Assembly: GCA_017474515.1 (NCBI GenBank)
Contig: JAFVHN010000096.1
Span: forward strand, 1-40,306
Length of the DNA: 40,306 bases
Direction of reading: 5' to 3'
From: Prevotella sp.
GTDB taxonomy: Bacteria; Bacteroidota; Bacteroidia; Bacteroidales; Bacteroidaceae
Positions 26,490-39,660 of this stretch are shown here, piece by piece. Position 1 is the stretch's first letter, and each line of letters starts with the position of its first letter. A model generated the notes under the pieces. That model did not search any database. It was not told the origin of the DNA and saw nothing but the letters and a program-made list of their open reading frames with translations. The position numbers and the translations under genes were made by a program.

Positions 26490-26970
26490 GGGAGCCGATG
26501 CCATAAAATCGCCGTTATAGAATCGCCGTTATAGAATCGCCGCCATAGAATCGTTGCCATAGGATTCGACCCTATAGGAGCCGACGCCTCCGAGCGTCGG
26601 ACTAACTAAAAATACTATACTCCGCCGCCATAGGAGCCGACGCCTCCGAGCGTCGGACTAACTTTTAAATATATATACTCCGACGCTTGGAAGCGTCGGC
26701 TCCTATTCCCGGACTAACTTTTAAATATATACTCCGCCGCCATAGGAGCCGACGCCTCCGAGCGTCGGACTAACTTTTAAATGTATATACTCCGACGCTT
26801 GGAAGCGTCGGCTCCTATCCCCGGACTAACTTTATAATATATATACTCCGACGCTTGGAAGCGTCGGCTCCTATATCGTCGGCTCTTTGGTGTCGGCTCT
26901 TTGGTGTCGGCTCCTATATCGTCGGCTCTTTGGTGTCAGCTCCTATAGTGTCGGCTTTTTGAGCTTCGGC
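26490..26970. repeat. Self-complementary array of six CCGACGC hairpins with tandem flanks
   Basis: Three F hairpins (CCGACGCCTCCGAGCGTCGG) at 26581, 26637 and 26749 and three R hairpins (CCGACGCTTGGAAGCGTCGG) at 26680, 26792 and 26848 are set in TAGGAG...ACTAACTTTTAAATATATA spacers. Start-to-start spacings are 56, 43, 69, 43 and 56, so order (F F R F R R) and spacing are unchanged by reverse complementing. The left flank is a tandem ATAGAATCGCCGTT-type repeat (26501-26565). The right flank is tandem GTCGGCTCTTTGGT (about 26878-26950). No gene is present. It lies downstream of the leftward helicase gene and may terminate it, but it is far larger than a terminator needs to be. Confidence 0.85.
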
Positions 26971-26973
26971 CAT

Positions 26974-29900
26974 TCATTCACTCTTCCCCTTCTTTGAAAG
27001 CACGATATTTGCCAGGCAGACGGCATGTTCCGTGTTGGAGTCTGGGGGTCGCCAGGCCAGGATGTAGCTCACTTTGGCCCGTGTCACCTCATATCCTTTC
27101 ATGGCCCACGCCTTCAGCCTGTCCTTGCCCGAGGCAGACAGGGCGGCGATGTTGAACCCCTGACTGTCGATTAGGTAACCGTCTTTGTATTGGAGGCTGT
27201 CGCCGCTCCTTAGTCGGAGCACGATTTTCTTCCGCCCCTTGAAGAAACCGAGCTGCACATCGTGCATGTTCAGCGCTATTGATACCGACGAGCAGAGGGC
27301 GGGGGGATTTGTCACGAGGAAGAGGTTTCGACGGGCTCGGGTGAGCCCCACGTAGTAGGCCCGCATGTCGCCCGCATCCCTTCCGTCGGGGATTGGCGAC
27401 AGCAGGTAAACGGTGTCGAACTCGCGCCCTTTGGCCTTGTGGATGGTGCTCACAAATACGGAGCGGTCGTCGGCGGCAATGAAGTCCTCGATGTTCGACT
27501 CGAAGATGTATTCGCGCAGGTCGCTACGGTAGATGGTCCTGTGGGTTACTTCAAAATCGGCGAAGAACCGCCGCATGACGTTCAGGCAGGTGCTTGTGGC
27601 GTAGGTGCTGAGGGTGCGTTGCTTGGCCTGTTGCCATTGTTCTTTCGCCACCGCCGCTTCGTCGTTGCTGCCGAGTTGCCGCAGGAAATAGCGCACTTCG
27701 GCGAGGTTGCCGAAATGGAATTCGCCCATGGACTGTGCAATGGTGGCATGTATTCCGCGCTGCTCCAATTCGTAGGCCACCAGCATTGTTTCTTCGTTGG
27801 TGCGGGTCAGCACGGCCGTGCTTCCCTGCACTTTGATTTCCGCATCAAACAGGTTTTTCAAGGTCTTCACCTGTCCTTCCTCGCCCGTTGCCGATTGGAT
27901 GAGGGTTTGCTTCATCCGGCCCGGAATGTGTTGCACAAAGCGGTTGGCGCAACCTACGACCGCCTTTGCCGAGCGGTAGTTGTCGGTCATTTCGTACAGC
28001 CGGGCGCCGTCCTGGCCGGCGAGCATCTGCATGTGGCGGGAATCGGAGCCGCGGAAGGCGAAGATGTTCTGGTCGTCGTCGCCCACCGCAATGACCCGCA
28101 TTTCCTCGTTTTGCCGCATCAGTGCCTGCACCAGCCGGAAATCATCGGGGCCCATGTCCTGTGCCTCGTCAATGACGAGCACGCTCTTGGCAATCTTCGA
28201 CGGCTCCACCTCGCCGCGCTCTATCATTCCGGAAGCCTGGCCCACCACGTCTTTCGCCTCGTCGAGCCGGCCCAGTTTGCCCAGGAGGTCGAAGCTGTAG
28301 GAGTGGAAGGTCTTGATTTCCACATAGTGGGCGGCGGTGCCCACAAGGTCGAGGAGGCGTTTCTTGAACTCGGTGGCGGCGGCCCTCGAGAAGGTGAGCA
28401 TCAGCAGTTGCTCGTGCTTCACGTCTTCCAAGAGCAGCAACGAGGCCAGCTTGTGTACCAGCACCCGCGTTTTGCCGCTTCCCGGCCCTGCCGCCACGAC
28501 GATGTATTTCGACCGGTTGTCGTCGATAATCTCGCGTTGTCGGTTGGAGAGGCCGCCAAAGAGCTTCTGATACCTGGCCGGTGTGATGTTGCGGCCTATC
28601 TGCTCGCGCCGCTCCTCCTTGAAATGCTGGTTGATGAACTTGCGGAAGTCGAGGGTGAAATAGTCGTTGACGAACTGCAGGGCGGCGTTGTAGTCGCGGA
28701 CCATCAGGTTGGCATATTCGCCCACGATATGAATTTGGCGGATGCGCTGCTTGTAGAATTCGTCCAGCAACCGGTATTGCTCCTTGCCATATCGCGTGCG
28801 GCGGTCGGCCGTCCGGCCTATCTGCATGGTGTTGTAGATGACGATGAAGCCGCCTTCTATCTTCACCAGCTCGGTCTTGGTGAGATAGAGCAGCGCTTCC
28901 TCTATGTCGGCAATGGCGGGCTCGCCGGCCGTCGGGCTTTCGCGGTCGGTGAACAACTGCTCTTGCCGGCTGGCAATGAACTTGCGGAGCATTTCCACGA
29001 TGGAGAAATCTACAAGCGTAAGGTCTTTGCCGGGGTCGCGCCGGGCATTCAGGGTGTCAACAATGAAGTGGCAAATGTCCATGCGCCGTTGGAAGCGGGC
29101 CGCCGTGACCTCTGCGGAACCTTGCAGGCGGACGCTCACACTGCCGGAGAATCCGTGTTCCTGTTTGTGAATATAACCTTTCAGGGACAGGAAGTGGAGC
29201 AACATTCTCAGGCGCTTGACGTTTGAATGGGGCAGGCCGGCCTTTTGCGCCTCTTCGTTCAGTTCCTTGTAGTTGATGCTCAGCGCTTCCTCGCCAAACC
29301 GGTTCAGGAGGAATTGTTCCAGCTTCAGAAGGAGGTTGAGGTTTTGTTGCGACGTGCTCTTGGAAATCCACGCCTGCATGTCGCGGGAGTCGGCCAGCAG
29401 ACCGTCCTGGCGCATGAGGTTGATGTTGCGGATGACGGTGGCCTTGCTCATGCCGAGGATGTCGGCCAGGTAGTCCACGCGGCTTTCGGCCTCGGCGCCA
29501 CGGCCCTCGGCGGTGGCCCGCGCGCTGATAAGCGACTTGATGATGCGTGCCGCCTCTTCGCGCGACTGCTCGTCAAAAAGTGGAGAGAGCATCAGCTTGC
29601 GGCGCGCCTCGTCCATGGTTTTTACGGCAATGCCCGTTGCAAAAACATGCGGCGAATTGCTGCCCCGTTGTATGAAGCCGGCATCCTCAAGAGCCGCGAT
29701 GGCCGCCTTAACGCGGGTTTCAATGTCTTCCACGCCGTCGCCCCATCCGGCCTGCCGGGCAATGTCCAATGGCGAGCAGCTCACCTGGCTCCGTTTTGCC
29801 GTAAGGTCCTTGACGGCCTTCCACACCTGTTGTATCTCGCTGATGCTGAGCTTGGTTTGGTTGAGCAGGATGAAATGCTTGTCGAGGTCGCTGTCGGTGT

Positions 29901-31668
29901 ATAACACGAAGCAGTCGGCCTCCATTTGCGGGTCGCGGCCGGCTCGGCCGGCCTCCTGAACGTAGTTCTCCAGGGAGTCGCTGATGTTGTAATGCACCAC
30001 CAGCCCCACATCTTTCTTGTCAACGCCCATGCCAAAGGCCGAGGTGGCCACAATGACCTGTGCCTGGCCGTTCATGAAGGCATTCTGGTTCTTCACCTTC
30101 TCGGCAGCCTCCATCTTGCCGTTGAAGGGCAGGGCGCGAATGCCGTCGCTGAGCAGGTGCTGGGCCAGTTCGCGGGTGCGCCGGGTTCGCGACACATAGA
30201 CAATGGCCGGACAGTCGTGGCCGAGTATCAGCGAGCGCAACAGGGTGTATTTCTCGTCGTCGGTGTCGGCATGGAGCACCGAATAGCGCAGGTTCTTTCT
30301 TTCGGCATTCGCCGCAAAAACCATCAGCTCTAACGACAGTTTCGACCGGAAATAGTCGCAAATGTCGCTGATGACCTTTTGTTTTGCCGTGGCCGTAAAA
30401 CACGAAACGGCGATAGGCTGCCCCAGGTGCTTCTTTTCCTGCAACTGACGGATGAAGTCGCCGATGTAAAGATAGTCCACGCGGAAATCGTGACCCCATG
30501 CCGAGAAACAATGGGCCTCGTCAATGACGAAGCGCACCACGTTACGGTTGATGAGCAGCCGCTCCACGGTCTTGCTGCGCAGCATTTCAGGGGCGATGTA
30601 GAGAAGGTTGGCGGTGCCCTCGGCCACCTGCTCAATGGCCGATGCCCGCTCGATGGGGTCGAGCAGCCCGTTGATGGTGACGGCATCGCTGATTCCACGG
30701 GCCGCAAGGTTGTCAACCTGGTCTTTCATCAATGATTGCAGGGGCGAGATGACCACCGTCAGCCCGTGGGTGTTGCGTCCGGCCATCAGTGCAGGCAGCT
30801 GGAAAGTAAGGCTCTTGCCGCCGCCCGTGGGGAAGATGGTCAGCAGGGAGTCGCCGCGGATGGCCGATTCCACCGCCTGTTGTTGCATGGGAACGCCGTC
30901 GAAGGTGCGGAACTCGTCGTAGCCGAAAAACTCCTTCAGGCCACTGTGCGCGTCAAGGTGCCCATGGCAATAGTCACAGTTCCCGCACGATGTGTTGCAC
31001 AGCAGGTGCATCACATTGACCACCTGGGGAAAATTGCGTATCACCCAGGAAGGAGTAATCGAAAAAATGTCGTCGGCACCAATCACGGCCAGGCAGTATG
31101 CCAGTTCCAAAGGGTAGCGCACGGCCAATGCGCTGAAGTCGGCATGGCCACACACCTTGCCATGATATTCTTGCAAGATGAGTTGGCACAGGTCTGGACT
31201 GAAAGAAGAATGGCCGGGGGAAAAGCGGATGTATTTGAAGAATCCTTCAAATTGGGAGGTGTGGTGAAGCAGGATGTAATAGATTTCCTTTCTGACGGGC
31301 GACAACTGGTTCCAGGCGGCAATCTCGTCGTTCAGCAAGTCGCGGGCTTTCATCGAGTCGTTCACGGGGTTGTTCAGCTCGTCAACCTGAAGCTTGTCGT
31401 CTTTCACCAAATGGTGATAAGGGCGCCTGGGGAACAAAAGGGGCGAGAGAAACAATGTATCGACAACCGTGGGCCGACCGCTCAGGGAGATGTATTTCAG
31501 GTCATGTTGGATGATGTTGTGACCACACACCGTGTCGCACATTGACACAAAAGCATCGAAATCGGCCTTGGAACGGGTGTGCAAGACGGCGCCGTCGCCC
31601 CTCACTGCTCCGTAATCGGCCACTTTCTTCGTCAGCGGGTGAACTTCTGTATCAATGAATACTATCAT
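26974..31668 (-). CDS. Giant DNA-repair-type fusion: DEDD exonuclease, RecQ helicase, UvrD-like helicase
   Basis: A 1564-residue protein. Residues 1-200 resemble a DEDDh 3'-5' exonuclease (FIDTEVHP with D6 and E8, GHNIIQHD near 49-56, and the YHHLVKDDKLQVDE block). A CNTSCGNCDYC cluster at 224-234 may bind zinc. RecQ-type helicase follows: FPTGGGKS near 279-286, DEAHCFSAWGHDFR near 383, and SAFGMGVDKKDV with YVQEAGRAGRD near 560-600. Winged-helix-like segments come next. A UvrD/Rep-type helicase follows with AAGPGSGKT near 1055, VIDEAQDMG near 1168, VGDDDQNIFAFRG near 1200, HKAKGREFDTVYLL, and YVGLTRARRNL near 1444. Similar fusions occur in Bacteroidetes and are catalogued simply as RecQ-family helicases. 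Two opposite-polarity motors plus a nuclease suggest fork or end processing; a role in defence is possible but not shown. No operon partner is intact. Confidence 0.88.
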   Translation of the reverse strand: MIVFIDTEVHPLTKKVADYGAVRGDGAVLHTRSKADFDAFVSMCDTVCGHNIIQHDLKYISLSGRPTVVDTLFLSPLLFPRRPYHHLVKDDKLQVDELNNPVNDSMKARDLLNDEIAAWNQLSPVRKEIYYILLHHTSQFEGFFKYIRFSPGHSSFSPDLCQLILQEYHGKVCGHADFSALAVRYPLELAYCLAVIGADDIFSITPSWVIRNFPQVVNVMHLLCNTSCGNCDYCHGHLDAHSGLKEFFGYDEFRTFDGVPMQQQAVESAIRGDSLLTIFPTGGGKSLTFQLPALMAGRNTHGLTVVISPLQSLMKDQVDNLAARGISDAVTINGLLDPIERASAIEQVAEGTANLLYIAPEMLRSKTVERLLINRNVVRFVIDEAHCFSAWGHDFRVDYLYIGDFIRQLQEKKHLGQPIAVSCFTATAKQKVISDICDYFRSKLSLELMVFAANAERKNLRYSVLHADTDDEKYTLLRSLILGHDCPAIVYVSRTRRTRELAQHLLSDGIRALPFNGKMEAAEKVKNQNAFMNGQAQVIVATSAFGMGVDKKDVGLVVHYNISDSLENYVQEAGRAGRDPQMEADCFVLYTDSDLDKHFILLNQTKLSISEIQQVWKAVKDLTAKRSQVSCSPLDIARQAGWGDGVEDIETRVKAAIAALEDAGFIQRGSNSPHVFATGIAVKTMDEARRKLMLSPLFDEQSREEAARIIKSLISARATAEGRGAEAESRVDYLADILGMSKATVIRNINLMRQDGLLADSRDMQAWISKSTSQQNLNLLLKLEQFLLNRFGEEALSINYKELNEEAQKAGLPHSNVKRLRMLLHFLSLKGYIHKQEHGFSGSVSVRLQGSAEVTAARFQRRMDICHFIVDTLNARRDPGKDLTLVDFSIVEMLRKFIASRQEQLFTDRESPTAGEPAIADIEEALLYLTKTELVKIEGGFIVIYNTMQIGRTADRRTRYGKEQYRLLDEFYKQRIRQIHIVGEYANLMVRDYNAALQFVNDYFTLDFRKFINQHFKEERREQIGRNITPARYQKLFGGLSNRQREIIDDNRSKYIVVAAGPGSGKTRVLVHKLASLLLLEDVKHEQLLMLTFSRAAATEFKKRLLDLVGTAAHYVEIKTFHSYSFDLLGKLGRLDEAKDVVGQASGMIERGEVEPSKIAKSVLVIDEAQDMGPDDFRLVQALMRQNEEMRVIAVGDDDQNIFAFRGSDSRHMQMLAGQDGARLYEMTDNYRSAKAVVGCANRFVQHIPGRMKQTLIQSATGEEGQVKTLKNLFDAEIKVQGSTAVLTRTNEETMLVAYELEQRGIHATIAQSMGEFHFGNLAEVRYFLRQLGSNDEAAVAKEQWQQAKQRTLSTYATSTCLNVMRRFFADFEVTHRTIYRSDLREYIFESNIEDFIAADDRSVFVSTIHKAKGREFDTVYLLSPIPDGRDAGDMRAYYVGLTRARRNLFLVTNPPALCSSVSIALNMHDVQLGFFKGRKKIVLRLRSGDSLQYKDGYLIDSQGFNIAALSASGKDRLKAWAMKGYEVTRAKVSYILAWRPPDSNTEHAVCLANIVLSKKGKSE

Positions 31669-33039: not shown

Positions 33040-33044
33040 CAATG

Positions 33045-33089
33045 TGGACCAGCCAGGGCTTGAACCTGGGACCTCCAGATTATGAGTCT
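33045..33089 (-). other. 3' half of tRNA-Met(CAU): attachment site (attL) of the integrated element
   Basis: The minus strand reads GACTCATAATCTGGAGGTCCC, then the T-arm CCAGG-TTCAAGC-CCTGG, then the acceptor half CTGGTCC and discriminator A. The anticodon loop CTCATAA gives CAU. Everything 5' of the anticodon stem is absent: past 33089 the sequence turns into AT-rich element DNA with no D-arm. This is the usual product of tyrosine-recombinase integration into a tRNA 3' half. The intact tRNA should be rebuilt at the far end of the element. The integrase gene starts 175 bases away. Confidence 0.85.
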
Positions 33090-33263: not shown

Positions 33264-34748
33264 ATGCCAAAGAAGAAATTCATGTTCACCGAATCGGCTG
33301 ATTTAGCCAATTTCAACTACAAGGGAATCTATGTGTCCCTTACTATTGATATACGCAAGTGGGCCGTTACAAAGAGAGATGAAGCTGGCCATCCGTTGGA
33401 GCACGACCAACTTCAGGAGTTGCCAATTGTTCTAAGAATAACCAAGGATTCCAAGCGTCTTTATTTGCCAATAGGTGAAAAATGCAAATGGAATGATTGG
33501 TTGGAAATGTGCAAGCACGAGCAAAGTACAAGAGTGAGAAGTGATTCCGAGAAACGCGCACAACTAAAGAAGCATATCACCAATCTGAAGCCAATAGTGT
33601 ATGAGATGGCCGATGCTGGTACTTTTTCCCTTGCCCGGATCAAAGATAGGTACAATGGAATTTCAAATGACGATGTCACCATATACACTATTTGGGACGA
33701 GTATATTCAAGAGAAGAAGAATGAAGGAGAATTTGGGACGGCTGGTGTGGGCAAAGACACTCGGAATCGTTTTATTAGAGACAATGGTAGAGAGGTTAAG
33801 TTTTCTGAGATAAACTTTGATTTCGTACAAGATTGGGTGAGAAAGATGCAGAAGGCCAAATTGAGCACAACATATATCGGTATTAATCTACGCACTTTTC
33901 GTACTATGGTAAATAGAGCCATCAGAAAAGGTTATGTTAAAGGTAATACGGAGGAAATGTTCAAGGACTCTGGCTATAACCAAATGGAAAGCCGGAAGGA
34001 TTGCTTTATGGCGGTGACAGTCTTTCAGCAGCTATATGAGTTTTGGGAGAAGGGTGAAGCAAAAGATGAGAATGGTAAGGAACTCTTTATTCCAAGGGAT
34101 AAAAATGCGCTATTCCGCGACCTTGGCCTGTTTCTTTTTATGTATTTTGCCAATGGGCAGAATCTGGCGGACACACTTCGTTTGGAATATGATAACTGGT
34201 ATTTTTCTTCACAAGGAAAACAACTGAGATTCCAAAGGCATAAGACAAAAGGTCGTACTAAAGGTGGCAGTGAAGTCATCTTCCCTGTTACGCCAGAGAT
34301 ACAGAAGATTCTTGACAGGTATGGCAACAAACCAAAACTGGGTGAACGCGTTTTCCCCATTTTGGACAAGTCTAAAACTCCAGAACAAGAGTTGTGGGTG
34401 ATACAACGCTACAATAAATACATTCGCAAACATATGAAGAAAGTAGCCGCGCTATTGAAATTAGAGCAGACACCCACCTCAACTTGGGCGCGTCATAGTT
34501 TCGCAACAAATCTGAACAATTCTGGATGCGTTCCACGGGAATATATACAAAGTAGTATGGCACATAGCTCCAACAATGATATTACGTCAAAATATATTGG
34601 CTCATATCCGCTACCCAAGATGCAGGAGTATAATTCATATTTGCTAAAAATCCCACAAACCGTTAATAGCACGGAAGATTTGCTCAATATACTTAAAGCT
34701 ATGAGCGAGGAGGAGCGTGCGGCACTGATGGAAGAGGCTTCTAAATAG
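33264..34748 (+). CDS. Tyrosine recombinase (integrase)
   Basis: A 494-residue protein. The N-terminal arm region (1-120) is followed by a SAM-like core-binding domain (about 135-225: IWDEYIQEKKNEG, FSEINFDFVQDWVRKM). The catalytic domain follows, with the conserved Lys in RFQRHKTKGR. TSTWARHSFATNL supplies Arg410 and His411, MAHSS a His near 434, and SKYIGSYP the nucleophilic Tyr near 443. The first catalytic Arg region is GQNLADTLRL; lack of the classical G-x-R there is common in Bacteroidetes integrases. It would integrate and, with the downstream HTH protein, excise the element at the tRNA-Met site. Consensus promoter upstream; a small hairpin follows the stop. Confidence 0.93.
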   Translation: MPKKKFMFTESADLANFNYKGIYVSLTIDIRKWAVTKRDEAGHPLEHDQLQELPIVLRITKDSKRLYLPIGEKCKWNDWLEMCKHEQSTRVRSDSEKRAQLKKHITNLKPIVYEMADAGTFSLARIKDRYNGISNDDVTIYTIWDEYIQEKKNEGEFGTAGVGKDTRNRFIRDNGREVKFSEINFDFVQDWVRKMQKAKLSTTYIGINLRTFRTMVNRAIRKGYVKGNTEEMFKDSGYNQMESRKDCFMAVTVFQQLYEFWEKGEAKDENGKELFIPRDKNALFRDLGLFLFMYFANGQNLADTLRLEYDNWYFSSQGKQLRFQRHKTKGRTKGGSEVIFPVTPEIQKILDRYGNKPKLGERVFPILDKSKTPEQELWVIQRYNKYIRKHMKKVAALLKLEQTPTSTWARHSFATNLNNSGCVPREYIQSSMAHSSNNDITSKYIGSYPLPKMQEYNSYLLKIPQTVNSTEDLLNILKAMSEEERAALMEEASK

Positions 34749-34760
34749 GTTATAACTCGG

Positions 34761-34789
34761 CGCAATCTGGCAAAAAAGTCGAGATTGCG
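34761..34789. terminator. Stem-loop after the integrase gene
   Basis: CGCAATCT at 34761-34768 pairs perfectly with AGATTGCG at 34782-34789 around a 13-base loop, 12 bases after the integrase stop. No T-run follows on the plus strand, so termination is uncertain. Confidence 0.4.
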
Positions 34790-34810
34790 TCAACTTATAA
34801 AGCGTGGAAC

Positions 34811-34920
34811 GGAACAAGTGGACATATTTGTGATGTTAAAAATGGAATAAGTGGGTATGCTTGCGGTGGCAAAATCGGAATAAGTTGGCAAAATTATTGC
34901 TAAAACTACGGAATAAGTGG
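34811..34920 (+). repeat. Four 11-bp direct repeats with an exact 33-bp period (operator-like array)
   Basis: GGAACAAGTGG at 34811, GGAATAAGTGG at 34844, GGAATAAGTTGG at 34877 and GGAATAAGTGG at 34910 start exactly 33 bases apart. The 21-22 base sequences between them share no obvious similarity. A 33-bp period is about three helical turns, so proteins bound to the repeats would face the same side of the DNA. The last copy ends 7 bases before the -33 box of the next promoter. The layout suggests cooperative binding of a regulator, perhaps one of the downstream proteins. Confidence 0.9.
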
Positions 34921-34927
34921 ATTTTTC

Positions 34928-34958
34928 TTTGCTGAATAAAGATTTTATTGTAATTTTG
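34928..34958 (+). promoter_or_regulatory. Consensus promoter of the ATPase operon
   Basis: TTTG at 34928-34931, a 19-base spacer and TAATTTTG at 34951-34958 match TTTG-N19-TAnnTTTG. Transcription should begin near 34965, a few bases before the ATG at 34983. The upstream in-frame ATG at 34917 precedes the promoter and so cannot be used. Confidence 0.8.
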
Positions 34959-34982
34959 CAGCGGAATTTTAATGACATTGTT

Positions 34983-36350
34983 ATGCTTGAACGTAAATTC
35001 ACTTCATTCCTGGAAAGTTTCCTTTTGGAAGAGCCAAATAAGATTCTGCTCGTTAACGGTGCACGACAGATAGGTAAGTCTTACCTTATCCGTTATGTTG
35101 GTCAGAAGTTGTTTCGACATTTTGTTGAAATCAACCTCAAAGAAGACATCGAAGGCGATAAGGTTTTCGCTGATGTTCATACAACCACCGACCTCTATAT
35201 GCGGTTGAGCAACTTCTATTCCTCCCCCTTGGGCGACAAAACCGATACGCTGGTTTTTTTGGATGAGATACAAAGCTATCCTCACTTGATGACGATGCTG
35301 AAGTTCCTCAACGGGGAATCGCGCTATCGTTTTATAGCAAGTGGTTCCCAGTTAGGTGTTGCTTTGTCGGAAACACCTTCTGTGCCCCTTGGAAGTGTGA
35401 CTATTGAGCAGATGTATCCTCTTGACTTTGAGGAGTTCCTTTGGGCCACAGGTGTCGGCAAGGAATGGATAGAGAACATACGGGAACACTTCAGTCATGA
35501 AGAGCCCTTGGATGAGAGTACACATAACATTCTGTTGAAGCGTTTCCAATATTATCTGCTTGTAGGTGGGTTACCTGAAGCCATCAACAATTATCTGGCT
35601 GATCGGAATATGGTTCGCGTCAGGCAGACACATAGGGACATACACAATCTCTATCGCATTGACGCTTCACAATATGATGAGGAACATAAACTTAAGATTC
35701 GCAAGATTTACGACCTTATCCCCAGCATCTTGGAAAACAAGAAGAAGCGCGTTGTATATAAAAATATAGAAAACAAGAAAGGAAAAACTTTCTCCGATTA
35801 TGCAGATGAGTTTGAATATCTAACCAACTCTGGCGTTGCTTTGGAAGTGTCTGCTATCAGCAATCCTCGTTTTCCTCTTGCTGAGTCTGATCAAAAGAAG
35901 CTGGTTAAACTCTATCTCAATGACGTGGGACTGTTGACGAATCTTCTGTATGGATTGAATGTGAATGCTGTTCTGCAAGACATCAAGAGCATCAATCTTG
36001 GTACAGTGTATGAGTCTGTGGTTGCTCAGGAACTTGCTGCACATGGCTTCAAATTGCATTATTATGATAACAAGAAAAAGGGTGAAGTGGATTTTCTTGT
36101 AGATGACCACGATAATTTGACGGTGCTTCCCTTAGAGATAAAATCAGGAAAGGACTATACTGATCATAGTGCGCTTACCAAATTCCTAGAAACGCCCGAT
36201 TACGGTATAAATCATGCAATCGTCTTTTCTAATGAACGGGAGATTTTCAGAAAGAAAGGTGTCACTTACCTTCCTATATATTATATTATGTTTCTCCATA
36301 ACGAGCATCGCGAAGAACCTGTAATACTACCCGAATTGGAAGCCATCTAA
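34983..36350 (+). CDS. AAA+ ATPase with DUF4143 (AAA_14 family)
   Basis: 455 residues from the ATG at 34983, chosen because the longer frame starts before the promoter. Walker A is NGARQIGKSYL (about 26-36) and Walker B is VFLDEIQSYP (about 88-97), with the sensor-like FIASGSQLG near 120. The middle carries the MYPLDFEEFLWA motif usual in this family. The C-terminal DUF4143 region ends in a GEVDFLVDD...LPLEIKSG segment (about 365-395) that fits a PD-(D/E)xK nuclease-like fold. These ATPases are widespread in bacteria and archaea, often in mobile or defence contexts, and their activity is mostly unknown. The next gene begins 14 bases after the stop, forming a two-gene operon. The periodic repeats upstream suggest tight control. 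Confidence 0.88.
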   Translation: MLERKFTSFLESFLLEEPNKILLVNGARQIGKSYLIRYVGQKLFRHFVEINLKEDIEGDKVFADVHTTTDLYMRLSNFYSSPLGDKTDTLVFLDEIQSYPHLMTMLKFLNGESRYRFIASGSQLGVALSETPSVPLGSVTIEQMYPLDFEEFLWATGVGKEWIENIREHFSHEEPLDESTHNILLKRFQYYLLVGGLPEAINNYLADRNMVRVRQTHRDIHNLYRIDASQYDEEHKLKIRKIYDLIPSILENKKKRVVYKNIENKKGKTFSDYADEFEYLTNSGVALEVSAISNPRFPLAESDQKKLVKLYLNDVGLLTNLLYGLNVNAVLQDIKSINLGTVYESVVAQELAAHGFKLHYYDNKKKGEVDFLVDDHDNLTVLPLEIKSGKDYTDHSALTKFLETPDYGINHAIVFSNEREIFRKKGVTYLPIYYIMFLHNEHREEPVILPELEAI

Positions 36351-36364
36351 TATATTGCGGATTC

Positions 36365-37753
36365 ATGGAAGAGAAGATGCTATTAGAGTGGAAAGAAGCC
36401 CACGCAGAAGTCTATGCCAAGTTCAAGGAGGATTTGGAAGGACAGTTGCAGAAACCATACCATCAGAATATCTTAGACCTTGGCGATGGCAATGCAGAAT
36501 CGCTGCAATCAGTCATTGTCAATCTTGCTGCCATGTCGTCGAAGGATGGCTTTGATATAGACAAGTTGTACGCGAAGGCTGTCGAGTCTGGTGATGCTTC
36601 TGTATATTGCTTGTGCTATTATTTTCTATTTGACAATGGTGAAGGCCGATTGGCTGATGCCATAGCGGATAAAGTCGAGAAGCCAGACGCACAGGAAATC
36701 TTCGAAGCCATCCAAGATTACAAGCGGTTCTACAAGCAGAACCGTAAACAGGAGGTAGCCGAGATAACGACAGATGAGCTGAACATTCTAACTCTTCGGC
36801 GTTGGCACTATGACCATCCAGAAGAATATAAGGAGTTTACGAATACGTTCCAAAAAGCCTACGATGGCGACATGACTTTCATCCAGACCAACTTCTTCTT
36901 CCTGATGGAGATGTTTTCAACCAAGGGCGTGAAAGGCATGATGAAAATCGTGGCTTCTCTGTTCCCTGGCAATAAGCACTACCAACAAAGTCTGATGGGG
37001 AGCGATGAGAACCCTTTGAAAGGTCGTTTGTCTGAAATGCTCGACTCTTCCCTCAACAATAAAGCTATCCGTGAGCGACTGCTTCACAAGAATCCTTATC
37101 TGTTTAGCCTTTACTATTGGATAATTTTCGACAACGGTTTCCTTCATGCTGCCGACCTCATATCCCAGACTTTCTTGAAACCCGAAAGCCCTTATTGGGA
37201 AAAACTTATCGGTAGGCGATGTGTGGAAGCCCTCATCGGTGCAAGTATTGACAAGGCCCGCTATTCAAAGGCACAGTGGAAGGAAGTAACCCAAAAACTG
37301 AAGAAAGGAGAGGCCAGGCAGGTCATAGATGTCGCCCTGTTAGAAGTGCAAGGGCGCAGAGGAAGGAAGAGCACCTATGTTCTCCTGGAAGAGATGCTGT
37401 CTACGGAACATGTCTCAATCTTGACGGATGAAATTCAAAAGTTATTGCAGGATTGGAAACAACTCGAAGATACAGACTCCATCCTGGCATACATCTTCGC
37501 AGCCTTGGTCAAAGGCAACTTGCTCTGCGGTGAGTACAACTACCGCACCTTCCATGCTGCCGTTCAGGAGAAATTCCCCGATTTCCATATCAACAAGGGC
37601 TATGACTGGGCAGAGGCTCTTTGCAATGCTGTTCTGTCTGATGATCTGAATTACAACATCAACATTTCTGAGGACCAAGTTAAACGAGGGCGTAGGTATG
37701 CTACCGACATAAAACTTCGATTGCTTTCATTGGTCAATCCCAATTTCGTATAA
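36365..37753 (+). CDS. Unknown, mostly helical 462-residue protein partnered with the ATPase
   Basis: No domain is recognised with certainty. The protein is soluble, charged and predicted by eye to be almost entirely alpha-helical, with repeated helix pairs suggesting a TPR/HEAT-like or scaffold architecture (GDASVYCLCYYFLFDNGEG, then YLFSLYYWIIFDNGFLHAA, which resemble each other). A hydrophobic FFFLMEMFSTKG stretch is near 180. No signal peptide, membrane segment or nuclease motif is seen. It starts 14 bases after the ATPase stop and is followed by an intrinsic terminator, so the pair is a closed operon. The context, cargo between integrase and excisionase of an integrative element, points to a defence, toxin or stability role, but this is inference. 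It may belong to a Bacteroidales DUF family that I cannot name with confidence. Confidence 0.75.
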   Translation: MEEKMLLEWKEAHAEVYAKFKEDLEGQLQKPYHQNILDLGDGNAESLQSVIVNLAAMSSKDGFDIDKLYAKAVESGDASVYCLCYYFLFDNGEGRLADAIADKVEKPDAQEIFEAIQDYKRFYKQNRKQEVAEITTDELNILTLRRWHYDHPEEYKEFTNTFQKAYDGDMTFIQTNFFFLMEMFSTKGVKGMMKIVASLFPGNKHYQQSLMGSDENPLKGRLSEMLDSSLNNKAIRERLLHKNPYLFSLYYWIIFDNGFLHAADLISQTFLKPESPYWEKLIGRRCVEALIGASIDKARYSKAQWKEVTQKLKKGEARQVIDVALLEVQGRRGRKSTYVLLEEMLSTEHVSILTDEIQKLLQDWKQLEDTDSILAYIFAALVKGNLLCGEYNYRTFHAAVQEKFPDFHINKGYDWAEALCNAVLSDDLNYNINISEDQVKRGRRYATDIKLRLLSLVNPNFV

Positions 37754-37761
37754 ACTTTTAG

Positions 37762-37787
37762 AGATGTCCTGTTAGGGGCATCTTTTT
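37762..37787 (+). terminator. Intrinsic terminator of the ATPase operon
   Basis: AGATGTCC at 37762-37769 pairs with GGGCATCT at 37776-37783 (one G-U pair) and is followed by TTTTT. It begins 8 bases after the stop of the 462-residue gene. Confidence 0.8.
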
Positions 37788-37793
37788 CGTTGT

Positions 37794-37872
37794 AATCGGG
37801 GCCCGTTTGTTAAAAACAAGTCCCGATTTGTTAATTATACCTCGGCAGAAATCGTGCTGATTTTTGCCGAGG
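37794..37872. repeat. Two hairpins before the excisionase-like gene
   Basis: AATCGGG (37794-37800) pairs with CCCGATT (37822-37828), with inner TTTGTT/AACAA pairing. CCTCGGCAGAAATC (37840-37853) pairs along 14 bases (one G-U) with 37859-37872 around a 5-base loop, GTGCT. The second stem ends 21 bases before the -7 box of the next gene, a plausible operator position. Neither has a following T-run. Confidence 0.65.
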
Positions 37873-37893
37873 AAAGACCCCATGACATTACGA

Positions 37894-37901
37894 TACCTTT
37901 G
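37894..37901 (+). promoter_or_regulatory. -7 promoter box of the HTH/DUF3987 genes
   Basis: TACCTTTG matches TAnnTTTG and lies 27 bases before the ATG at 37929. No TTTG is present at the standard -33 spacing, so an activator may be needed. Confidence 0.55.
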
Positions 37902-37928
37902 CGGCATGAAACTATTAAACGCGAAGAT

Positions 37929-38243
37929 ATGACTGGAAATTTCGTAATGCTTCAGATGGATGACCTCAGGCAGGTTGTCACTGAGATTGTAGAAGAGGTC
38001 TGCGCAAAGCGCGGCTTTTATGAGAAACCTTCCGAAGAAGAAGGCGAGTGGTTAACCCGCGAAGAGGTGTGCGACATGCTGCGCATCACCTACACGACGC
38101 TATGGCGAAAGGAGAACGAAGGTGTCATCAAGAAACACAAGATGGGCCGACGCAACCTCTATTCCAAGAAAGAGGTGATGGACATTTTCTCTTCCGCTAT
38201 AGAAGGTGGTGATAACAAATGTAAGGAGGAGTGCCATGGATGA
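37929..38243 (+). CDS. Excisionase-type helix-turn-helix DNA-binding protein
   Basis: 104 residues from the ATG at 37929 (MTGNFVMLQMDDLRQVV); the frame runs back to 37854, but that part lies upstream of the -7 box. The C-terminal half is a winged HTH of the MerR/excisionase class: WLTREEVCDMLRITYTTLWRKENEGVI, then KMGRRNLYSKKEVMDIF. Proteins like this sit between integrase and replication genes in many Bacteroidales elements and serve as excision factors or regulators. The gene overlaps the next one by 8 bases. Confidence 0.85.
   Translation: MTGNFVMLQMDDLRQVVTEIVEEVCAKRGFYEKPSEEEGEWLTREEVCDMLRITYTTLWRKENEGVIKKHKMGRRNLYSKKEVMDIFSSAIEGGDNKCKEECHG
38223..38229 (+). promoter_or_regulatory. Strong Shine-Dalgarno sequence
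   Basis: AAGGAGG lies 6 bases before the ATG at 38236 and fixes the start of the DUF3987 gene against the earlier frame opening at 38206. Such strong sites are unusual in Bacteroidetes and here lie inside the end of the preceding gene. Confidence 0.75.
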
Positions 38244-39660
38244 CCCCATCATGTCTTTTGACGGAAATGGACAGCCAGATGTCCTTTCCCTCATTAACTC
38301 CGAGGCAGAGAAGGTGGAGCCTGCTAACAAGGTTTCACCCTCTCCTCCTGCCGTACAAGCACCAGCTCCTGAACTTCCAGAGTCTTTGCCGGCTCCTCCT
38401 GATCAACCCAAGGAAACGTCGCACCTGAAGGCATCGACCTTCGCGGAGCCAGTGCTACCTATTGATTGGTTGTCCGAACCTGTGCAGGAGTATATCCGTA
38501 CTGTCTCAGAATCCTACGGATGTCCGCAAGAGTATGTAGTGGTTAACAGTCTCTTCACTGCTGGCCTCGCGGCAGGGAAAAAGGCGCAGCTCGTCACCAA
38601 CCCTTATACGAATTACCCATGCGACTTTTTCTGCATGGTTGGTAAGCCCAGCCGAAACAAGACTGGTCCCCTCAAAGAAGTTACCCGTCCTTTACGCGAA
38701 CAGGATAAAGCCAACTTTGCCAAGTACCAGGAAGAAAAAGCCGCTTATGACCAATGCAAGCATGAAGACAAAAGCTACAGCGGTGAGCAACCTGTATTCC
38801 ACCAACGGATAGTCGGTGACAGTTCACCTGAATCCCGTAATGCCTTGCTTGCTCAGGGTGACATGATTGGAGTTGTGGCTGACGAACTGAAGTCGTTCAT
38901 CGATTCCTTGGGGCGTTATTCCAAAGGTGGAAATGGCTCAGGGGCGGAGCTGTCACAATTGCTTTCCATTTGGTCAAACGTCGGCTTTGCTATTAACCGA
39001 AAGTCAGAAGAGACCAAACTGATTGATGATCCTGCCATGTGCATCAATGGCGGCATACAGCCTGAACTGCTCGGCAAGACCTTTGGCACAGATGCCTTGA
39101 TGGATTCCGGCTTCACGCAACGATTCCTCTTTGCCTATCCCGACAAAGGCACATTTATTAGGCGGTGCGACCGCAAGTTCATGACACCAGAGATGCGCGA
39201 GAGCTGGACTGGTATCATTGGCAGACTATTCAACATGCAGCCGTTAACACTCCAATTGTCTCATGAGGCAGGACGACGTTACGCAGACTATGCCGATGCA
39301 AATGACATGAGGGCAGATGCGGAAGAGGATTGCTACATTGGCGGCATGATACAGAAGATGAACATCCATACGCTGCGCTTGGCTATCATGGCCCATCTGC
39401 TGTCCAACCATTGGAACGAGCCAGTTATCACGGCTGAAGGAATGGAACATGCCATCCGCATGGCCGACTACTTTACCCACATCCATATCGAGCGTATATA
39501 TCCTTTGTTACGAGGCTCGGCGACCACACAACGTCTGATGACCAACGGTGACTTGCTACGTGCCGTCAATCGACAGTTCACAATCAAGTCGCAGAATGCC
39601 CTTGCCGAAGCTCTCGGTGTTTCTCAACAATATGTCAACAAAATATTAAAAGAACAATGA
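38236..39660 (+). CDS. DUF3987 family protein (primase/helicase-associated, mobile element)
   Basis: 474 residues from the ATG at 38236. A proline-rich linker (about 30-70) is followed by the DUF3987 body: EYIRTVSESYGCPQEYVVVN, VGKPSRNKTGPLKEV (a Walker A-like GxxxxxKT loop), GDSSPESRNALLAQGD, VADELKSFIDSLGRYS, and MDSGFTQRFLFAYPD. The C-terminus has a small HTH-like end (ALAEALGVSQQYVNKILKEQ). The family is common on Bacteroides integrative elements next to BT4734/VirE-N proteins, where the two likely take part in element replication. The P-loop has Asn where Gly is usual before the Lys-Thr, so ATP binding may be altered. Confidence 0.85.
   Translation: MDDPIMSFDGNGQPDVLSLINSEAEKVEPANKVSPSPPAVQAPAPELPESLPAPPDQPKETSHLKASTFAEPVLPIDWLSEPVQEYIRTVSESYGCPQEYVVVNSLFTAGLAAGKKAQLVTNPYTNYPCDFFCMVGKPSRNKTGPLKEVTRPLREQDKANFAKYQEEKAAYDQCKHEDKSYSGEQPVFHQRIVGDSSPESRNALLAQGDMIGVVADELKSFIDSLGRYSKGGNGSGAELSQLLSIWSNVGFAINRKSEETKLIDDPAMCINGGIQPELLGKTFGTDALMDSGFTQRFLFAYPDKGTFIRRCDRKFMTPEMRESWTGIIGRLFNMQPLTLQLSHEAGRRYADYADANDMRADAEEDCYIGGMIQKMNIHTLRLAIMAHLLSNHWNEPVITAEGMEHAIRMADYFTHIHIERIYPLLRGSATTQRLMTNGDLLRAVNRQFTIKSQNALAEALGVSQQYVNKILKEQ

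What the first reader, a model, noticed from the sequence alone, without database searches (positions are those of the whole stretch)
34811..37787. Self-contained two-gene cargo (DUF4143 ATPase + unknown helical protein) in a tRNA-targeted element: candidate undescribed system
Between the integrase and the excisionase-like gene lies one closed operon: a periodic operator-like array, a consensus promoter, an AAA+/DUF4143 ATPase, an unrecognised 462-residue protein 14 bases later, and an intrinsic terminator. Cargo slots of integrative elements often hold anti-phage or stabilisation modules. DUF4143 ATPases carry a nuclease-like C-terminus and have no settled role. Seen: gene order, motifs, promoter, terminator. 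Inferred: that the two proteins act together, and that the role is defence or maintenance.
Basis: partly seen in the sequence, partly recalled or inferred. Interest (0 to 1): 0.78.

Follow-up and report, generated by a model that had tools for sequence, protein, structure and literature searches.

The report
Swappable ATPase-nuclease cassette with operator array
A mobile DNA element carries one interchangeable gene slot, here filled by a very common but uncharacterised ATPase-nuclease that sits behind its own evenly spaced row of repeated DNA sites, a layout that recurs in front of many of its relatives and suggests the gene is controlled by its own product.

Summary
In detail: four GGAAYAAGTKG repeats at exact 33-bp steps, a Bacteroidetes-type promoter, an AAA_14/DUF4143 ATPase (PADLOC candidate PDC-S01), a 462-aa gene 14 bp later, a terminator.

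The two-gene reading does not. The 462-aa protein (P462, divergent DUF6043) goes with the element. Upstream of it, 28 informative loci hold four DUF4143 lineages (20), a PDC-S27 ATPase (4), a YhcG nuclease (2), HipA (1) or nothing (1). In three lineages the cargo stays 95-100% identical between diverged backbones; leaders of earlier occupants remain as fossils.

The array is the stronger result. Of 138 non-redundant DUF4143 genes, 62 have a three-copy array upstream, only with periods 33/32 (50) or 23/22 (12), although 18-60 was allowed; other genes 6/408. Period follows ATPase clade. A two-copy test finds 78/100 in clade I and 12/18 in a phylum-wide sample, where the strict test found only 1/18. 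Promoter boxes lie inside or just after 40 of 49 arrays. Best reading: autorepression by the ATPase, untested. Its cellular role is unknown.

The parts
33044..33089 (-). 3' portion of tRNA-Met: left attachment site of the element
   Evidence: 46-47 bp identical to the tRNA-Met of L095 and L102, where the same stretch (94.6-96.7% over 56-61 bp) also stands before the integrase
33264..34748 (+). tyrosine integrase (494 aa), element backbone
   Evidence: Phage_int_SAM_5 and Phage_integrase over cut-off; found in 24 of 29 P462 loci
34749..34800 (+). inverted repeat after the integrase; left edge of the cargo slot
   Evidence: scored above shuffles in 13 of 15 slot leaders compared, not in the two lineage C ones
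34811..34921 (+). array of four GGAAYAAGTKG repeats, 33-bp period
   Evidence: 10 of 11 array sites in 151 family genomes are directly upstream of this ATPase lineage
34928..34958 (+). Bacteroidetes-type promoter TTTG-19-TAATTTTG (consensus recalled)
   Evidence: sequence; -7 boxes lie inside or within 45 bp after the array in 40 of 49 arrays
34983..36350 (+). AAA_14/DUF4143 ATPase with intact PD-(D/E)xK residues (455 aa), PDC-S01
   Evidence: Walker and D/E/K columns
36365..37753 (+). P462, divergent DUF6043 protein, element backbone
   Evidence: 29 homologous loci, integrase in 24, HTH gene in 24
37760..37785 (+). intrinsic terminator-like hairpin
37854..38243 (+). HTH_17 excisionase-like gene
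   Evidence: 33.2 bits; a match follows P462 in 24 of 29 loci
38236..39660 (+). DUF3987 primase-type gene
   Evidence: 155.6 bits; matched in 15 of 29 P462 loci, 8 of them at 71-94% and 7 at 24-30% identity

Best explanation
The interval is an exchangeable one-module cargo cassette plus one backbone gene, not a two-gene system. The cassette is array + promoter + DUF4143 ATPase-nuclease (PDC-S01). It sits in a slot between the integrase and P462 of a tRNA-Met element and has been replaced repeatedly by other single-module cargo (shown by comparison). The 33-bp array is the cis-site of the ATPase itself: copies bind on one face of the DNA about three helical turns apart, cooperatively cover the promoter and repress the gene (inferred). 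When the protein is drawn to another substrate, such as invading or damaged DNA, the promoter is released and the AAA+/PD-(D/E)xK protein acts on that DNA (inferred, weakest step). P462 is carried along by the promoter and probably serves the element (inferred).
For: Slot turnover: in 28 informative loci the gene upstream of P462 is one of four DUF4143 lineages, a PDC-S27 ATPase, YhcG, HipA or none; among 12 loci compared, slot genes of lineages A, A2 and B are 95-100% identical within a lineage across integrases down to 59% and P462 down to 64% identity; window and L094 keep 92-100% DNA identity per 50-bp block over the ATPase, with integrase blocks of about 62-74%; fossil leaders of earlier occupants. 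Array goes with the ATPase: 62 of 138 non-redundant DUF4143 genes against 6 of 408 other genes and 4 of 4140 shuffles, periods only 33/32 or 23/22, split by clade; replicated on 75 genes fetched after the pattern was seen (29 of 64 clade I, all 33/32; 8 of 11 clade C, all 23). Autorepression anatomy: -7 box inside (27) or just after (13) the array in 40 of 49; shuffle mean 4.7, largest of 20 shuffles 11. Enzyme intact: Walker A and B residues 100/100, E and K of the nuclease motif 100/100, D 95/100 with E in the other 5.
Against: No binding, repression or phage assay for this family in what I read. The strict three-copy test failed in the phylum-wide sample (1 of 18); only the two-copy test is positive there (12 of 18). 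In clade I 51 of 100 fail the strict test. The period is not strictly clade-bound: 9 of 24 DUF4143 genes outside both clades show two copies at 32/33. Motif and protein similarity correlate weakly (rho 0.16, 1 of 2000 permutations as high) and not below 40% identity, so 'the ATPase reads its own motif' rests on linkage. A host factor that reads spaced sites is not excluded. Lineage C slot genes are only 69-87% identical to their exemplar and the two ATPase_2 types 42%, so not all cargo shows recent transfer. P462 stays 11-26 bp behind the A, A2, C and D cargo genes measured, which could mean a functional tie. The gene after the HTH gene also varies.
Confidence: 0.55

Rival explanations
1. Two-gene system: the ATPase and P462 act together.
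For: 14-bp gap and shared terminator; a DUF4143 gene directly upstream of P462 in 20 of 28 informative loci.
Against: The neighbour changes to an ATPase_2 protein, HipA, YhcG or nothing; lineage A ATPase with array occurs in four genomes without any P462 match; P462 has a shortened frame in L093, L099 and L102 beside a full-length ATPase; in three genomes only a degenerate 5' remnant of P462 follows an 89-90% identical full-length ATPase.
Confidence: 0.07
2. The array is a binding site of the integrase or excisionase (arm or core sites) rather than an operator.
For: It lies between integrase and excisionase genes in the window.
Against: The A array precedes the ATPase in L046-L048, where no integrase match lies within the 4.7-7 kb fetched upstream; slot loci with other cargo have other leaders; DUF4143 genes in many other contexts show the same periodicity.
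Confidence: 0.03
3. The array is bound by a host regulator or nucleoid protein that reads sites three turns apart; the ATPase is merely its target gene.
For: About 21 of 49 units share a core like AAAARTG(T) (column shuffles mean 1.4, largest 6; the core was chosen after seeing the motifs), which one protein family could read.
Against: Four paralogues of genome G055 have four different motifs, although two of the three G081 motifs are alike; period differs between ATPase clades, 33 or 23; arrays occur in several phyla.
Confidence: 0.2
4. The array is a centromere or self-address: the ATPase binds it to keep, segregate or exclude the DNA that carries it, as partition loci combine a repeat array, an overlapping promoter and an ATPase (recalled).
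For: Array over the promoter, ATPase next to it, motifs that differ by lineage; mobile context.
Against: Several genomes carry ten or more DUF4143 matches, up to 20; no ParA-, ParM- or TubZ-type domain among the Pfam hits.
Confidence: 0.15

Closest known systems
PDC-S01 (PADLOC phage defence candidate; AAA_14 + DUF4143)
   Same: The window ATPase matches PDLC04792 over residues 1-449 with 600.6 bits. PMC12988326 (passages read) calls PDC-S01 the fourth most common defence across prokaryotes, an ATPase fused to a PD-(D/E)xK domain, with validation pending for most PDCs; PMC13356809 (abstract and passages read) finds it the most frequent individual locus in rumen genomes.
   Different: A search of the text of PMC12988326 for direct repeat, tandem repeat, promoter, operator and autoregulat found nothing; the 33- and 23-bp arrays are the addition here.
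RptR-controlled defence island (PMC12255303; outline, abstract and one results section read)
   Same: Direct repeats overlapping the promoter of a defence locus, bound cooperatively by a product of the locus, which represses it.
   Different: RptR is a separate small repressor and its three repeats are 9 bp long; here sites are 33 or 23 bp apart and no separate regulator gene is seen in the cassette.
DUF6043 (PF19509)
   Same: P462 matches profile positions 12-273 of 314 at 63.8 bits; 7 of 10 other DUF6043 loci also have a primase-type match nearby.
   Different: Divergent: nine of 14 DUF6043 matches in the order sample score 263-391 bits. None of ten DUF6043 loci checked had a DUF4143 gene within about 1.5 kb; of seven distant P462 loci one (L053) had one, on the other side of the integrase, and L055 a weak 26.6-bit match.
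Cargo slots of integrative elements and satellites (recalled)
   Same: Fixed position, exchangeable defence or toxin-antitoxin cargo.
   Different: Here one module at a time in the loci seen, with leader fossils of earlier occupants.

Membership tests
PDC-S01 / DUF4143 ATPase | AAA_14 and DUF4143 domains over cut-off | tested here: met
   81.0 and 87.0 bits against 27 and 28.1; PADLOC 600.6 bits
PDC-S01 / DUF4143 ATPase | Walker A/B and PD-(D/E)xK residues intact | tested here: met
   window has K32, D94, E95, E344, D370, E385, K387; these columns are 95-100% kept in 100 clade I proteins
PDC-S01 / DUF4143 ATPase | anti-phage activity | not testable with these tools
   needs plaque assays; none reported in the passages read
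DUF6043 | match over the curated cut-off | tested here: met
   63.8 bits against 23.2
two-gene ATPase-P462 system | constant partner across elements | tested here: not met
   upstream gene differs among 28 informative loci
two-gene ATPase-P462 system | ATPase usually accompanied by P462 | tested here: not met
   DUF4143 in 137 of 151 genomes, P462 matches in 17 of 151
tRNA-targeted integrative element | integrase and duplicated tRNA 3' end | tested here: met
   tRNA-Met end repeated at both sides in L095 and L102; left copy in the window; the window's right copy lies outside the contig
autorepressed operon | product binds sites over its promoter | not testable with these tools
   anatomy fits; binding not shown
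partition locus (ParABS, ParMRC, TubZRC) | ParA-, ParM- or TubZ-type ATPase | tested here: not met
   no such Pfam hit up to E 1

The most novel reading that the evidence does not exclude
DUF4143 (PDC-S01) genes are single-gene immune or maintenance modules in which one polypeptide is regulator, motor and nuclease, and the evenly spaced array with its own motif is its private address. Binding there keeps the protein harmless and repressed; titration or loss of the address (invading DNA, replication, displacement of the element) releases it to attack DNA. Paralogues in one genome stay separate by using different motifs at the same spacing.
Probability: 0.15. Interest if true: 0.85.

Novelty: new variant of a known kind. 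Interest (0 to 1): 0.64.

Why it matters
PDC-S01 is among the commonest candidate defence genes of prokaryotes and, in the papers read, has no shown mechanism. A cis-element with an exact period that differs between ATPase clades ties it to a testable biochemical act, cooperative binding next to its own start, and offers a reporter for what activates it. The slot shows cargo being swapped one module at a time in a tRNA-targeted element, with traceable fossils of earlier occupants.

Tried and rejected
Two-gene system: tested through P462 homologues in 151 family genomes (17 with a match), 393 order genomes (4 with a match) and 29 loci of genome contigs, and rejected. Array as integrase site: rejected. 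sigma-70 promoter scan: uninformative. P462 profile against solved structures: no hit up to E 10; ATPase: two hits, best E 0.093, not credible. P462 in viral contigs: none; ATPase: two loci. Motif-protein covariation: weak, absent below 40% identity. Fossil in L090: 28 against a shuffle maximum of 25, not counted.

Literature: DUF4143, one paper, listing only; DUF6043, none; PDC-S01, three papers, two read in passages; phage defence candidate with PADLOC, four papers, listing only; AAA_14 with Bacteroid or mobile, 11,519 papers holding two of three terms, none of the 15 listed holding AAA_14; guilt-by-embedding, four papers, of which one further paper read in part; PF13173/PF13635, one paper, listing only; operator-array terms, none; a last mixed search gave three papers that I judged unrelated from the listing. 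Subscription journals and preprints are not in this library, so 'not described' means not found by these searches.

Statistics: the score threshold (8) was set after a first run on 63 genes; 75 genes fetched later are the replication. The filters (under 90% identity to another, at least 330 aa, at least 200 bp upstream) reduced 182 hits to 138. Gene starts are the first ATG, and some motifs contain ATG, so distances to the start are uncertain. The 18 phylum-wide genes were not filtered for redundancy and some are near-copies. For plasmids and phages 16 of 73 matching records were fetched, picked for taxonomic spread: 10 had period 32/33, one had 42, five did not pass. PADLOC and Pfam were run on representatives of each slot lineage; the other slot genes were labelled by similarity to these.
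Full report
WHAT IS THERE. The integrase (33264-34748) starts 175 bases to the right of a 46-bp copy of a tRNA-Met 3' end (33044-33089). In two relatives, L095 and L102, the same stretch stands at both ends of the element, about 12 and 8 kb apart, so this is a tRNA-Met-targeted element; the window ends before its right border. After the integrase come a hairpin (34749-34800), four GGAAYAAGTKG repeats at exact 33-bp steps, a promoter of Bacteroidetes type (consensus recalled), the AAA_14/DUF4143 ATPase, P462, a terminator-like hairpin, an HTH_17 excisionase-like gene and a DUF3987 primase-type gene.

P462 GOES WITH THE ELEMENT. P462 is a divergent DUF6043 protein. A scan of genome contigs with an alignment of seven homologues gave 29 loci. 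An integrase match is found in 24 of the 29, the HTH gene after P462 in 24, a primase-type match in 15 (8 at 71-94%, 7 at 24-30% identity). Integrase is not seen in L080, L087, L088 and L105, where the contig starts near the cargo gene or P462, and in L091, where other genes lie upstream. The gene directly upstream of P462 (representatives named by Pfam and PADLOC) is: lineage A DUF4143, 2 loci; A2 (41% identical to A), 2; B, 7; C, 9; an ATPase_2 protein (PDC-S27), 4; a YhcG/DUF1016 nuclease (PDC-S02), 2, one of them (L105) a shortened frame; a HipA_C protein, 1; none, 1 (L100, integrase directly before P462); not visible because the contig starts at P462, 1 (L088). Some loci are near-duplicates (L095/L096, L081/L082/L091). 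So DUF4143 fills 20 of 28 informative places, in four distantly related lineages. In L093, L099 and L102 P462 has a shortened frame beside a full-length ATPase. In three genomes of one genus (L046-L048) an 89-90% identical ATPase with its array is followed only by a degenerate 5' piece of P462.

THE SLOT TURNS OVER. Among 12 loci compared, slot proteins of lineages A, A2 and B are 95-100% identical within a lineage and at most 41% between lineages, while integrases range from 52 to 100% and P462 from 61 to 95%. Not all cargo is so uniform: lineage C, left out of that comparison, is 69-87% identical to its exemplar, and the two ATPase_2 proteins compared are 42% identical. Window and L094 share the ATPase at 92-100% DNA identity per 50-bp block, beside integrase blocks of about 62-74% and P462 blocks of about 76-100%; L094 and L079 have almost identical integrase DNA yet slot genes of different lineages, 23% identical. 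Fossils lie in the left part of the slot: L079 (now B) keeps part of an A2 leader; L081 and L082 (now ATPase_2) keep an A leader with array, a B leader and a B trailer; L085 (now A2) keeps a B leader (scores 41-110 against shuffle maxima of 23-30). L090 was borderline and is not counted. L108 has an A array after an integrase-type hairpin (by eye) but no ATPase.

THE ARRAY GOES WITH THE ATPASE. The exact A motif pair occurs at 11 sites in 10 of 151 family genomes and never in the reversed control. Ten of the 11 are directly upstream of lineage A (87-100% identical; in L061 only 36 residues are visible before the contig ends); one is the ATPase-less L108 site. I then asked whether other DUF4143 genes have arrays of their own. 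Score: longest run of columns identical in three copies, mismatches subtracted, any period 18-60, 300 bp upstream of the first ATG. A first run on 63 genes suggested 33 bp. On 138 non-redundant genes 62 score 8 or more: period 33 in 43, 32 in 7, 23 in 11, 22 in 1, no other. Controls: 4 of 4140 shuffles; 6 of 408 other genes in the same loci, two of which by their coordinates share the intergenic stretch with a DUF4143 gene; 4 of 60 stretches downstream of DUF4143 genes. On the 75 genes fetched after the pattern was seen: 29 of 64 in clade I, all 33 or 32, and 8 of 11 in clade C, all 23. A quick maximum-likelihood tree puts 49 period-33/32 genes in a 100-row clade and 11 period-23 genes in a 14-row clade, with no mixing between these two; two exceptions lie among the other 24 rows. 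Two copies are enough to see the period in 78 of 100 clade I genes (other adjacent period pairs: mean 3.5, largest 9) and in 14 of 14 clade C genes; other genes in the same loci: 11 of 408 at 32/33, other pairs mean 7.7, largest 24. Against a strict clade rule, 9 of the other 24 DUF4143 genes also show two copies at 32/33 (other pairs mean 0.6, largest 3).

LIMITS OF THE ARRAY RESULT. In a phylum-wide sample the strict test found 1 of 18 clade-I-like genes and 2 of 10 others, one of these at 53 bp: a negative result. The two-copy test found 12 of the 18 at 32/33 against a mean of 0.2 and a largest value of 1 for other pairs; these 18 include near-copies. Of 16 plasmid and phage-collection records, picked for taxonomic spread from 73 matches, 10 had a period of 32 or 33 (Segatella, Prevotella, Collinsella, Agathobacter, Glaesserella, Vibrio, Criblamydia and three faecal phage clones); Vescimonas scored at 42; Fusobacterium (two), Acinetobacter and Parabacteroides (two) did not pass. 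Motif similarity follows protein similarity only above 40% identity. About 21 of 49 units share a core like AAAARTG(T), chosen after seeing the motifs.

HOW IT MAY WORK. In 27 of 49 arrays a TAnnTTTG -7 box lies inside the array and in 13 more within 45 bp after it (shuffle mean 4.7, largest of 20 shuffles 11; 9 have none). In 17 of 49 the third copy ends within 10 bp of the first ATG, though some motifs contain ATG, so the true start may differ. This is the anatomy of repression at the gene's own promoter. Spacings of 32-33 and 22-23 bp are close to three and two helical turns, so copies lie on one face (inference). Walker residues and the E and K of the PD-(D/E)xK motif are invariant in 100 clade I proteins, the D in 95, so an active ATPase-nuclease is likely; lineage B reads Q and S where E and K stand, by eye, so not every slot ATPase need be an active nuclease. 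Autorepression by the ATPase is the best reading; a host regulator or a centromere-like use remains possible. The role, anti-phage or element maintenance, is inferred from family labels and company only.

NOVELTY. The gene is a member of PDC-S01, a listed but, in the passages read, unvalidated candidate. I found no description of the arrays in the searches named under Tried and rejected. RptR is the nearest precedent met for direct-repeat control of a defence locus.

Noticed in passing
window 26974-31668 (-): A 1564-aa ORF whose N-terminal part reads like a RecQ-type helicase and whose C-terminal part reads like a UvrD-type helicase (by eye, not searched), with repeat-rich DNA at 26500-26961 just downstream of its stop.
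   Followed up: no
window 26574-26956: Tandem repeats of about 56 and 43 bp with GTCGGCTCC cores after the long helicase-like gene.
   Followed up: no
window 37854-38243: The excisionase-like HTH gene scores weakly to PADLOC mad1 (27 bits) and NCBIfam MADS1 (18.1 bits, below cut-off); probably only the shared HTH_17 fold.
   Followed up: no
L148 / L177 (G023:C54): Two divergent DUF4143 genes share one intergenic array with a 32-bp period.
   Followed up: partly
L261 4364-4903: In Fusobacterium animalis a DUF4143 gene overlaps a gene annotated as RNA 2'-phosphotransferase by 8 bp.
   Followed up: no
L046-L048: In three genomes of one genus lineage A ATPase plus array sits beside a conserved 714-aa protein gene and is followed by different DNA-methyltransferase-type genes that look like restriction-modification systems (by eye).
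   Followed up: partly
L083 1778-1847, L081 and L085 leaders: Lineage B leaders carry a palindrome-like ATTTTGTCTTTTATAAAAGATAAAA instead of a direct-repeat array.
   Followed up: partly
L079 5057-5177, L087 1378-1477: After lineage B and HipA cargo P462 has a 100-121 bp leader with a TTATTCCGCTAA...TTAGCGGAATAA hairpin, while after the A, A2, C and D genes measured it follows within 11-26 bp.
   Followed up: partly
L053 10676-12053 (-): A clade I DUF4143 gene lies on the far side of the integrase from a distant P462 homologue and has its own 33-bp array.
   Followed up: partly
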